A stretch of DNA of 35,823 nucleotides from an uncultured Methylococcaceae bacterium (lineage in GTDB: Bacteria > Pseudomonadota > Gammaproteobacteria > Methylococcales > Methylomonadaceae). The stretch lies in the NCBI GenBank assembly GCA_903866825.1, contig CAIPPE010000231.1, positions 1 through 35,823 on the forward strand, in the 5' to 3' direction. Both the position numbers and the translations under genes were made by a program. Below, piece after piece: positions 29,325-31,976 of this stretch; positions within the stretch are counted from its first letter, which is position 1; every line of letters starts with the position of its first letter. Under the pieces are notes generated by a model. The model ran no database searches. It worked only from the letters and a program-made list of their open reading frames with translations, and was not told where the DNA came from.

Positions 29325-29527
29325 TCCCAGTTTCATTAAGTTAAGCGAAAGCAGTCTAAACCCCGGAGTGCAATCGCTTCAGCTATTGTCATGTTCTGGT
29401 CTTGATCTACTATAAACAAGGTCTCGTTTGCTCTCAATTTGGTAATTGAAAGACGCGTAAACTTGTCACTGATAGCGCTGTCTGTTATTGTCTGTCGACA
29501 AAGTTTTCTAGGCAAGCAGAGGTTATC

Positions 29528-30916
29528 ATGTCAGGCAGAATTGATTTTACGATGGGCTTTAAAACTCAAGGAGCGGGGCAAAAGAATGAAAGCAGTGAAG
29601 GGTATCGCATTTATATTTTAGGAAATTTCTCGGGTCAGTCTGCTGGTTCTTGGCAACAGCGAAAAATTAGAGCGATTGATATGGATAACTTTGATCAGGT
29701 AATGACTCAAGTCAACCCATTACTTGAAATTGGTTCTGGTTTGTCATTAACGTTTAAAACGTTAGATGATTTTCATCCTGATGCCTGGCTTGAAAAAGTT
29801 CAGATAATCGCTGATTTGCAAAAATTAAAGAGGGAGTTAAATAACCCTGCTACTGCTGCACAGGCAGCGGCGAAAATACAGGCATATTATCAATCTGAAA
29901 CGAAAAGTGAAAAGGCTTTTACATCGGTTGAGCCTCAGGCGTCCGGCGAAAGTCAGGACGATATTATGGAACGTTTACTCGGCAAAAAATCGGTCAATAC
30001 TGCCAGCAGTACCCAGTCGGTGGATCACTTCATTAATCAGCTTATTTCTCCGCATGTAAAGAAGGAAGTTGATCCGCAACATCAGGCTTTAATTAAATTG
30101 ATTGATTCAACGATAAGTCAATTCCTAATAATCCTGTTACATAATCCTGACTTTCAGAATTTAGAAGCGCTTTGGAGAGCTACTGAAGCCTTGGTTAATG
30201 AAGATCTGGCTGATGAACAAAGCGTTTATCTGGTCGATATCAGTCAATCGGAGTTGTTAGCTGAAATCAGAAAGGGCAATCTCGGTTTTGAACAAAGATT
30301 GCTTCAGCATGTTCAGTCGAATGATGATGAGCAGGCTGTTTTATTAGTCGGTGATTATTCTTTTACTGGTAGTGACGATGATAAAGATTTGCTGAGGTAT
30401 TGCGGTCACTTGGCAAAAGCCTCAGGGGGAACTTTCCTGGGTGGTGTAGCCGAGGCGTTGATTGAAAGTTCTATCTTGGGTGAGTCTGCCAATGTCAAAA
30501 GTTGGGTTCAATACTTAAGAGACGTTAACACCGACCGCGTTATATTAGCTTATCCCCGTTATTTATTGAGATTGCCCTATGGTAATAAACGTGATCCGAT
30601 TGATGCGTTTGAGTTTGAAGAATGTCCTGCTATACCTCAGTCAGATGAACTGCTTTGGGGAAATGCAGCTTTTATAGGGGCACGTTTTCTGATAAAAACC
30701 AGTCAAGGGGACAGCCGCCAGGAACAGTTATATTTTGGTGATATTCCGGTTTTTAGCTTTGATCAGGATGGGGAGAAAGTCTTGCAGCCTGCTACCGACG
30801 TATTATTAAATGAAGCGCAGGCAAACGGGTTATTGGCTCAAGGGATTTCGCCCTTGCTGGGTTTCCGTCAGCGTTCTGGGGCCCGTCTAATGGCAATTAC
30901 TACCTTGTCTGAATAG
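29528..30916 (+). CDS. fused TssB-TssC-like contractile sheath protein
   Basis: This 462-residue protein joins both subunits of the type VI secretion sheath. Residues 1-125 resemble TssB/VipA (RIYILGNFSGQ, then DMDNFDQVMTQVNP and LTFKTLDDFHPDAW). After a variable linker, residues 166-462 resemble TssC/VipB (HNPDFQNLEALWRATEALV, RVILAYPRYLLRLPYG, FEFEECP, LLWGNAAFIGARF). Normal TssB plus TssC would total about 650 residues, so the TssC part is shortened, mainly in its C-terminal portion. No TssA, ClpV, Hcp, VgrG or baseplate gene is visible nearby. AGAGG precedes the ATG and a strong terminator follows, so it is a single-gene unit. It could assemble a sheath-like structure of unknown use. Confidence 0.82.
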   Translation: MSGRIDFTMGFKTQGAGQKNESSEGYRIYILGNFSGQSAGSWQQRKIRAIDMDNFDQVMTQVNPLLEIGSGLSLTFKTLDDFHPDAWLEKVQIIADLQKLKRELNNPATAAQAAAKIQAYYQSETKSEKAFTSVEPQASGESQDDIMERLLGKKSVNTASSTQSVDHFINQLISPHVKKEVDPQHQALIKLIDSTISQFLIILLHNPDFQNLEALWRATEALVNEDLADEQSVYLVDISQSELLAEIRKGNLGFEQRLLQHVQSNDDEQAVLLVGDYSFTGSDDDKDLLRYCGHLAKASGGTFLGGVAEALIESSILGESANVKSWVQYLRDVNTDRVILAYPRYLLRLPYGNKRDPIDAFEFEECPAIPQSDELLWGNAAFIGARFLIKTSQGDSRQEQLYFGDIPVFSFDQDGEKVLQPATDVLLNEAQANGLLAQGISPLLGFRQRSGARLMAITTLSE

Positions 30917-30934
30917 TCATAGTGCGTATCGAAT

Positions 30935-30976
30935 AAAAAAACGTCCATGACTAAAGTCATGGACGTTTATATTTTC
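30935..30976. terminator. bidirectional rho-independent terminator
   Basis: ACGTCCATGACT (30941-30952) and AGTCATGGACGT (30955-30966) form a perfect 12-bp stem with a two-base loop. Six or seven A precede it and a T-rich run follows, so it can end transcription both from the sheath gene on the left and from the small membrane protein gene on the right, whose stop codon lies a few bases beyond. Confidence 0.9.
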
Positions 30977-30980
30977 CATT

Positions 30981-31154
30981 TTAATCCCATGAATATTGAC
31001 TTGATTTGTGTTTCTTTTGATTGACGTTGATGTAGCTTGCAATAGCGGCTACGGCGAATAGAGTTGATGAAATAATAAATTCTCCTGAAATATAGCCCAC
31101 TAAGCCTATTACAAAGAGTACAGCAATTAAAACATCTTTTGCTACGGTGCACAT
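30981..31154 (-). CDS. 57-residue two-helix membrane protein
   Basis: A short minus-strand gene starting at ATG 31154 with GAGGA seven bases upstream, ending at TAA 30983-30981. Two hydrophobic segments are visible: DVLIAVLFVIGLVGYI (residues 7-22) and a second around FIISSTLFAVAAIASYI (26-42), followed by a basic and polar tail (NQKKHKSSQYSWD). This is a hairpin-type membrane protein with the tail likely in the cytoplasm. Its stop is placed exactly behind the bidirectional terminator of the convergent sheath gene, which supports it as a real transcript unit. I do not recognise the family. A longer frame on the same strand in another phase (from 31152) is its shadow. Confidence 0.65.
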   Translation of the reverse strand: MCTVAKDVLIAVLFVIGLVGYISGEFIISSTLFAVAAIASYINVNQKKHKSSQYSWD

Positions 31155-31403: not shown

Positions 31404-31976
31404 ATGAAAAAATGTTTAATGCTCTTGTCGCTCATTTTATTATCTGCTTGTACAGCGCTTCCCCCTAAAAATGCAGATAACCTGTGTGCTACGTTTAAAG
31501 AAAACGAAGATTGGTATGAGGATGCTAAAGAATCTTATAAAAAGTGGGGGATACCGGTTCATGTGCAGATGGCTATTATGCACCAGGAGTCTCACTTTGT
31601 AGCGGATGCAAGACCCCCTCGAACCTGGTTATTGGGTTTTATTCCCTGGTTTAGGCCGAGCAGTGCTTATGGTTATGCACAGGCTTTGGATGATACTTGG
31701 GATCACTATGTTGAAAATGCAGGAAGCTGGTGGGCTGATCGTGATGACTTTACGGATGCGGTCGATTTTATAGGGTGGTATAGTTATACCAGTCATGCGC
31801 AATTGGGTATATCCACAACAGATGCAAAAGGCCTTTATCTTGCCTATCATGAAGGGCAGAGGGGTTATCAGCGTAAAGCGTATTTAAATAATGCCTCATT
31901 AAACCGGGTCGCCGATAAAGTGGCTTATAAAGCAAGGGAATTTCAACGCCAGTTGAATACTTGTAAAATCAATTGA
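31404..31976 (+). CDS. lipoprotein with transglycosylase SLT-like domain
   Basis: The 190-residue protein has a lipoprotein signal peptide with lipobox LSAC (lipidated Cys16) and so is membrane-anchored in the periplasm. The following domain has the lysozyme-like SLT start: WGIPVHVQMAIMHQESHF with candidate catalytic Glu62, then SSAYGYAQALDDTWDHY, which corresponds to the GxMQ region of lytic transglycosylases, and a C-terminal YLAYHEGQRGYQRKAY. It likely cleaves or binds peptidoglycan. Members with this spacing are mostly uncharacterised. No strong ribosome site precedes the ATG. No partner gene suggests a secretion role. Confidence 0.8.
   Translation: MKKCLMLLSLILLSACTALPPKNADNLCATFKENEDWYEDAKESYKKWGIPVHVQMAIMHQESHFVADARPPRTWLLGFIPWFRPSSAYGYAQALDDTWDHYVENAGSWWADRDDFTDAVDFIGWYSYTSHAQLGISTTDAKGLYLAYHEGQRGYQRKAYLNNASLNRVADKVAYKAREFQRQLNTCKIN

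What the first reader, a model, noticed from the sequence alone, without database searches (positions are those of the whole stretch)
29528..30916. Lone single-chain TssB-TssC sheath protein outside any type VI cluster
Residue patterns of both sheath subunits are read in one continuous frame of 462 residues, with a compressed TssC part. It forms its own transcription unit with a terminator and no other secretion genes in 35 kb. Classical sheaths need two separate chains and ClpV; a fused, shortened version might form a static tube, a small contractile device or a scaffold. Next to AmmeMemoRadiSam and a small membrane protein, it may be part of something not yet described.
Basis: partly seen in the sequence, partly recalled or inferred. 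Interest (0 to 1): 0.62.

Follow-up and report, generated by a model that had tools for sequence, protein, structure and literature searches.

The report
Single-chain T6SS sheath look-alike protein
A bacterium related to methane-eaters carries, away from its type VI secretion ("crossbow") genes, a one-piece look-alike of the crossbow's sheath building block that lacks the part needed to build a tube, and since related look-alikes nearly always occur in genomes that also have the crossbow's real sheath gene, it probably serves that machine rather than forming a new one.

Summary
Window 29528-30916 (+) is one intact frame of 462 codons: a TssB-like domain (residues 4-120) joined to a TssC-like domain (187-456). 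The "compressed" TssC part is a clean loss of the C-terminal gp25-like handshake domain, not found by Pfam in any of 21 fused proteins scanned. The genome does carry a canonical T6SS on other contigs. The gene is not a recent duplicate: fused proteins form their own clade, fully separated (100/100) from canonical TssC and rhizobial TssC40. Fused genes co-occur with canonical-type TssC (17 of 18 genomes, against 50 of 351 others), sometimes inside T6SS clusters or beside vgrG. Their linker carries a TssC-type N-terminal helix motif whose type agrees with the ClpV groove class of the same genome in 19 of 19 by my sorting (18 if one ambiguous motif is scored the other way), on only 1-2 independent changes. 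In six Rhodobacterales loci the module hangs on a complete TssB through an acidic linker. Best reading: a T6SS accessory, a non-polymerising sheath paralogue that acts on the resident sheath and/or ClpV. A stand-alone tube is unlikely. My paper searches found no description.

The parts
29528..30916 (+). Gene for the single-chain TssB-TssC paralogue, 462 aa
29537..29560 (+). Residues 4-11 (RIDFTMGF): counterpart of the TssB N-terminal donor strand (beta1)
   Evidence: Pfam aligns residue 4 to profile position 8; own-genome TssB residue 10 is at position 2 (sequence); strand role from PMC5807055 passages
29537..29887 (+). TssB/VipA-like domain, residues 4-120
   Evidence: PF05591, 46.8 bits
29948..29992 (+). 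Linker motif ESQDDIMERLLGKKS, residues 141-155: counterpart of the TssC N-terminal helix
   Evidence: the family profile aligns this stretch with the VipB N-terminus; compared across genomes
30086..30895 (+). TssC/VipB N-terminal (domain 2) part, residues 187-456; the protein ends about where the gp25-like domain would begin
29389..30936 (.). Stretch with no blastn match in close relative G033: the presence/absence unit (gene plus about 140 bp upstream)
30939..30968 (.). Terminator-like hairpin (13-bp stem, T-rich on both strands); in the flank shared with the relative lacking the gene

Best explanation
The gene encodes a member of an ancient, separate family of single-chain TssB-TssC paralogues that serve the resident T6SS in trans. 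SHOWN by sequence: the counterparts of the heterodimer core (sheath domain 2), of a TssB N-terminal strand and of a TssC N-terminal helix motif are kept; the gp25-like handshake domain (acceptor strands and C-terminal donor strand) is lost. INFERRED: it cannot polymerise on its own. It docks on canonical TssBC, most simply at a sheath end or on free protomers, by giving its N-terminal strand to a neighbour. Having no acceptor, it ends or limits extension, and it is handled by ClpV through its class-matched helix. It would thus tune sheath length, stability or turnover.
For: Domain content: (21 distinct fused proteins, no PF18945 hit). Profile against solved sheaths: TssB chains and TssC chains match up to, not into, the C-terminal domain. 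Co-occurrence with a canonical-type TssC match: 17 of 18 fused genomes against 50 of 351 others among 369 genomes, Fisher p=6e-13; 4 of 4 in a second set of 397. Six genomes carry it in or beside a T6SS cluster and three beside vgrG; the three plasmid loci read with wide flanks carry it inside a large cluster. Linker helix type agrees with ClpV groove class in 19 of 19 genomes by my sorting, 18 if G360 is scored the other way. In 6 of 6 Rhodobacterales frames the module is fused to a complete TssB domain, which would place it on the sheath. Own genome has TssK, L, M, TagF-PppA, A, B, C, Hcp, TagJ, E, F, G, H and VgrG. Close relative G033 lacks the gene, and neither TssC nor a ClpV above cut-off was found there.
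Against: No interaction was tested. The helix-ClpV match rests on 1 independent contrast on supported branches, 2 on the best tree, so it may reflect shared descent; motif types were assigned by eye, and the G360 motif (GLFDQLL) also resembles the LLDEII class, which would make it a mismatch (ClpV Arg6/Asp87). Genome G273 has a fused gene but no TssC, TssM or ClpV hit, although that MAG is 95% complete. A ClpV above cut-off was found in 19 of 23 fused genomes; G037, G265, G267 and G273 lack one. The AlphaFold2 model is poor (pLDDT 46), so docking geometry is unmodelled. The gene is sporadic: 2 of 35 genomes of the genus. The TssB peptide that binds TagJ is missing in the window protein (sequence; peptide from PMC4239648). 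Absence in G033 is weak evidence, since that MAG is 74% complete.
Confidence: 0.43

Rival explanations
1. Soluble ClpV decoy or adaptor: it binds the ClpV N-domain through the linker helix and modulates sheath disassembly without ever joining a sheath.
For: Linker helix type agrees with ClpV groove class in 19 of 19 genomes by my sorting, 18 if G360 is scored the other way; six Rhodobacterales forms carry 4-12 copies of DDx[LI]xx[LI] before the core against shuffle means of 0.3-1.0.
Against: Does not explain why the whole TssB-TssC core and the N-terminal strand are kept. In the TagJ-type system of P. aeruginosa the isolated ClpV1 N-domain did not bind HsiC1 (PMC4239648, results section read), and the window's genome is of that type.
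Confidence: 0.25
2. Accessory for a particular VgrG or effector: a sheath-like chaperone that helps load or place one spike.
For: VgrG lies next to the fused gene in 6 loci clustered (L032, L034, L059, L060, L070, L075) and close by in L067 and L073; four further Rhodobacterales loci have vgrG directly downstream.
Against: Twelve genomes, the window's included, show no vgrG in the stretch read; own VgrG is on another contig.
Confidence: 0.12
3. Stand-alone static tube, small contractile device or scaffold.
For: Single-chain sheaths exist in phages and pyocins (PMC5807055 passages); the gene is unlinked to T6SS genes here; G273 has the gene without T6SS hits.
Against: The domain with handshake acceptor and C-terminal donor strands is missing; no tube or baseplate gene found in the window; strong co-occurrence with canonical TssC.
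Confidence: 0.05
4. Decaying remnant or neutral gene fusion.
For: It diverges faster than its neighbours: 85% identity to the sister copy against 89-100% for seven neighbours; sporadic in the genus.
Against: Open frame with dN/dS 0.12; a separate clade found in genomes of many families with the same truncated architecture.
Confidence: 0.03

Closest known systems
T6SS contractile sheath TssB/TssC (VipA/VipB, HsiB/HsiC)
   Same: Homologous TssB domain and TssC N-terminal domain; TssC-type N-terminal helix motif in the linker
   Different: One chain; no gp25-like C-terminal domain; separate clade; no TagJ-binding TssB N-terminal peptide in the window form
Second TssC of rhizobial systems (TssC40/ImpD)
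   Same: A second, divergent TssC-like protein beside the canonical pair; in A. tumefaciens Atu4340 is needed for Hcp secretion, and TssB and TssC41 still accumulate without it (PMC3702570, passages)
   Different: The two rhizobial copies tested have VipB plus VipB_2 and no TssB domain; they fall with canonical TssC in the tree. Atu4340 itself was not in hand
Single-chain sheaths of phages, R-pyocins and extracellular injection systems
   Same: Sheath fold in one chain
   Different: gp18 and the R2 pyocin sheath keep domains 1 and 2 (PMC5807055, passages). In the phage collection P0001 hit only the TssC-like part of 5 records, none covering 80% of it; the one IMG/VR locus confirmed was an adjacent tssB-tssC pair
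Sheath accessory proteins TagJ, TagA, TagB
   Same: Accessory factors acting on sheath stability or recycling (PMC10433429, passages)
   Different: Not sheath paralogues (recalled for TagA and TagB; TagJ has an ImpE fold, PMC4239648)

Membership tests
T6SS contractile sheath (TssB/TssC) | TssB (PF05591) and TssC N-terminal (PF05943) homology | tested here: met
   both above the Pfam cut-off, both below the NCBIfam equivalog cut-offs
T6SS contractile sheath (TssB/TssC) | gp25-like C-terminal domain of TssC (PF18945) that carries the handshake | tested here: not met
   no hit in the window protein or in 20 fused relatives scanned; canonical TssC of the same genome does hit
T6SS contractile sheath (TssB/TssC) | Two separate chains | tested here: not met
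T6SS contractile sheath (TssB/TssC) | Polymerises into a tube around Hcp and contracts | not testable with these tools
   needs electron microscopy or imaging
Rhizobial TssC40/ImpD | TssC-like protein with VipB and VipB_2, no TssB domain | tested here: not met
   (two rhizobial copies) against (window)
Rhizobial TssC40/ImpD | Shares a clade with the window protein | tested here: not met
   L036 and L038 second-TssC rows lie among the canonical rows
T6SS-associated accessory protein | Occurs with a T6SS | tested here: met
   exception G273; ClpV above cut-off in 19 of 23
ClpV client or partner | Helix motif of the class read by the resident ClpV | tested here: inconclusive
   19 of 19 agree by eye, 18 if G360 is scored the other way; only 1-2 independent changes

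The most novel reading that the evidence does not exclude
The family is a dedicated chain terminator of the T6SS sheath: a protomer with a donor strand but no acceptor that caps sheath discs and hands the end to ClpV, so that cells set sheath length or turnover with a separate gene. In Rhodobacterales the cap is tethered to a working TssB by a long acidic repeat linker.
Probability: 0.25. Interest if true: 0.82.

Novelty: new variant of a known kind. Interest (0 to 1): 0.55.

Why it matters
How T6SS sheath length and turnover are limited is, to my knowledge, not fully solved (recalled). A sheath paralogue that keeps the donor strand and the core but lacks the polymerising domain is a ready candidate regulator, and it can be tested in non-pathogenic methanotrophs. 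Public annotation calls the plasmid-borne relatives "contractile sheath large subunit", so they could be counted as real TssC.

Tried and rejected
TssC40/ImpD identity: proposed from memory, tested by Pfam and tree, rejected. Phage or viral origin: no fused form found. Shared gene neighbourhood for the unlinked copies: the clusters listed showed vgrG, T6SS genes and strain-level synteny, and no other tie that I could make sense of. Rows dropped: G224, and the full-length rows whose frame holds a stop (G224 twice, G590, G563, G653, G634, G537, G544, G579, G697, G677, G723, G647), read as adjacent tssB-tssC pairs. One of the two G224 places was checked; the others are judged from the stop and from frames of 671-852 codons, and the match list was itself capped. 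Genomes G265 and G267 hold only part of a fused gene at a contig end; they are counted in the 18 but not in the motif table, nor is G273, which has no T6SS hit. Literature: searches found no paper on a TssB-TssC fused sheath paralogue; a 2026 survey of plasmid T6SSs (PMC13098142) has no "fused" or "fusion" in its main text (passages). That holds for the open-access library only, and mostly returned unrelated papers.

Full report
What is there. The window holds one intact frame of 462 codons at 29528-30916 (+). Pfam finds a TssB/VipA domain at residues 4-120 and the VipB (TssC) N-terminal domain at 187-456, both above the curated cut-offs, and no VipB_2 gp25-like domain. NCBIfam's two sheath models hit below cut-off. 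A tblastn of my T6SS reference proteins against the 35.8 kb finds only this gene. A tblastn of the last 130 residues of canonical-type TssC proteins finds no remnant beside the gene (best E 0.05, about 7 kb away). dN/dS against the sister copy (85% identity) is 0.12, so it is not a pseudogene.

The own genome has a T6SS. The window is contig C231 of a 4.28-Mb, 345-contig genome. Contig C54 carries TssK, L, M, TagF-PppA, A, B, C, Hcp, TagJ and E (frames; identities by Pfam or profile and by blastp to annotated proteins). C104 carries TssF, TssG and TssH/ClpV, and VgrG is on C232. The kin named in public records are methanotrophs: Methylomonas, Methylicorpusculum and an uncultured Methylococcaceae MAG; methane oxidation itself was not checked here.

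Presence and absence. Among 35 genomes of the genus, two have the fused gene. The sister copy sits in the same neighbourhood, with seven neighbours 89-100% identical. In close relative G033 the flanks align, but everything from 29389 to 30936 is missing; the terminator at 30939-30968 lies in the shared flank. In G033 (74% complete) neither TssC nor a ClpV above cut-off was found. Copies in Methylomonas and in G308 of the same family lie beside other genes, so AmmeMemoRadiSam is probably an incidental neighbour.

Family and distribution. With a 7-row alignment, 369 genomes of the window's class gave 68 with any match at E<=1e-20; 18 carry a fused form (16 complete, G265 and G267 cut by contig ends) after dropping G224, an adjacent tssB-tssC pair. 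Of the 18, 17 also have a separate match of canonical type, against 50 of the other 351 (Fisher p=6e-13; genomes are related, so p is only a guide). PF18945 was found in 19 of 20 fused genomes tested; the exception, G273, also lacks TssM and a strong ClpV hit. ClpV above the curated cut-off was found in 19 of 23 fused genomes; G037, G265, G267 and G273 lack one. In a second set of 397 genomes across the phylum, 4 carry the fused form and all 4 also have canonical TssC. At most 4 first-look candidates per genome were scored in these two searches and the list was capped, so counts are lower bounds. Placement varies. In or beside a T6SS cluster: G272, G144, G408, G226, G267, G531. Beside vgrG with no cluster in the stretch read: G128, G258, G265. 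No cluster in the stretch read: the window, G308, G360, G404, G196, G298, G112, G412, G362, G273, G787, G693 and the Methylomonas and Methylicorpusculum loci (G412 and G273 have a PpkA-like kinase nearby); some of these stretches are short contigs.

Not a recent duplicate and not TssC40. [quoted passage not shown] L025 and 7 canonical rows were left out for want of an anchor motif. Many fused branches are long, so order inside the clade is unsure. I had suspected the A. tumefaciens TssC40/ImpD family (a recalled lead); the two rhizobial second-TssC proteins tested have VipB plus VipB_2 and no TssB domain, so that filing fails.

Anatomy against known sheaths. A 21-row family profile hits TssC chains of solved sheaths with up to 245 bits and TssB chains with up to 63 bits; the TssC match ends before the C-terminal domain. 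In the P. aeruginosa sheath the handshake is built of TssC beta11 and beta12 plus donors TssC beta13 and TssB beta1 (PMC5807055, passages read). By this map the window protein keeps a beta1-like strand (RIDFTMGF) and domain 2, and lacks beta11, beta12 and beta13. The missing domain was not found by Pfam in any of 21 distinct fused proteins scanned. A tube made of it alone is therefore implausible. That it still donates beta1 is inference; some relatives' N-termini are too divergent to say.

A helix that tracks ClpV. The same profile aligns the linker with the VipB N-terminus, the helix read by ClpV in V. cholerae. PMC4239648 (results section read) reports two classes: TssC with LLDEII and ClpV with aliphatic groove residues, or TssC with EFASLL-like ends, ClpV with Arg6/Asp87 and often TagJ. 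I sorted the fused linkers by eye into LLDxI-like (6 genomes) and RLLG- or FxxLLG-like (13 genomes) before reading the ClpV residues. All 6 LLDxI-like genomes have ClpV Leu6 with Ala or Val at 87; all 13 others have Arg6 with Asp87 (12) or Asn87 (1). One of the 13, G360 (GLFDQLL), is ambiguous; scored as LLDEII-like it would be a mismatch, giving 18 of 19. Five of the six LLDxI-like genes are unlinked to the T6SS in the stretch read (G531 is the exception). TagJ is absent in 5 of 6 and present in 14 of 14 respectively, the latter count including G037, whose ClpV was not read, and leaving out G265, G267 and G273. However, there is only 1 independent contrast on supported branches and 2 on the best tree, so shared descent could explain the agreement. 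In the TagJ-type system of P. aeruginosa the isolated ClpV N-domain did not bind HsiC1, so direct binding here is unproven.

Tethered versions. In all 6 Rhodobacterales loci examined, the open frame upstream of the annotated start continues into a complete TssB domain (two VipA stretches, one VipB and no VipB_2 in all 6). Five of the six TssB parts have SQKFIARNRAP, as in the TagJ-binding N-terminus of PMC4239648, and one a variant. An acidic linker follows, 502-833 residues in the five anchored frames, with 4-12 DDx[LI]xx[LI] motifs before the core in the six (shuffle means 0.3-1.0), then the fused core and an acidic tail. That the whole frame is translated as one protein is not shown. The three plasmid loci read with wide flanks (two Rhodobacterales, one Eleftheria without the TssB part) are large T6SS clusters that also hold separate tssB and tssC. 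A complete TssB in the same chain would place the module on the sheath.

Mechanism and verdict. Most likely a T6SS accessory: a single-chain sheath paralogue that docks on canonical TssBC and cannot be extended, with ClpV as probable partner. I put about 0.8 on "T6SS-coupled, does not form its own tube" and 0.43 on the docking/limiting mechanism. No binding, imaging or usable structure supports the mechanism yet. It is a new variant of a known kind. The library searches turned up no description, and public annotation lists relatives simply as TssC.

Noticed in passing
L032:16009-19650, L034:15913-19662, L141-L144: Rhodobacterales plasmid T6SS clusters: the annotated 'contractile sheath large subunit' gene seems to start too late; the open frame includes a complete TssB and a long acidic repeat linker.
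   Followed up: partly
L059, L061, L062, L063, L066, L067, L072, L095, L097, L032 and others, end of the fused core: A short GxW peptide sits just after the core, where the gp25-like domain would begin, in at least 17 of 33 fused proteins (12 flagged, 5 more seen); not seen in the window's own subfamily.
   Followed up: no
G273:C179 (L063, L098): A fused gene in a 95% complete MAG with no TssC, TssM or strong ClpV hit; a PpkA-like kinase is nearby.
   Followed up: partly
window 30981-31154 (-): 57-codon ORF that reads as a small membrane protein, next to the terminator hairpin.
   Followed up: no
window 29528-30916 against neighbours: The fused gene diverges faster (85% identity) than its seven neighbours (89-100%) between sister genomes.
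   Followed up: no
window 31404-31976: SLT_4 transglycosylase with a lipoprotein-like start, the next gene downstream on the same strand; present also in G033, which lacks the fused gene.
   Followed up: no
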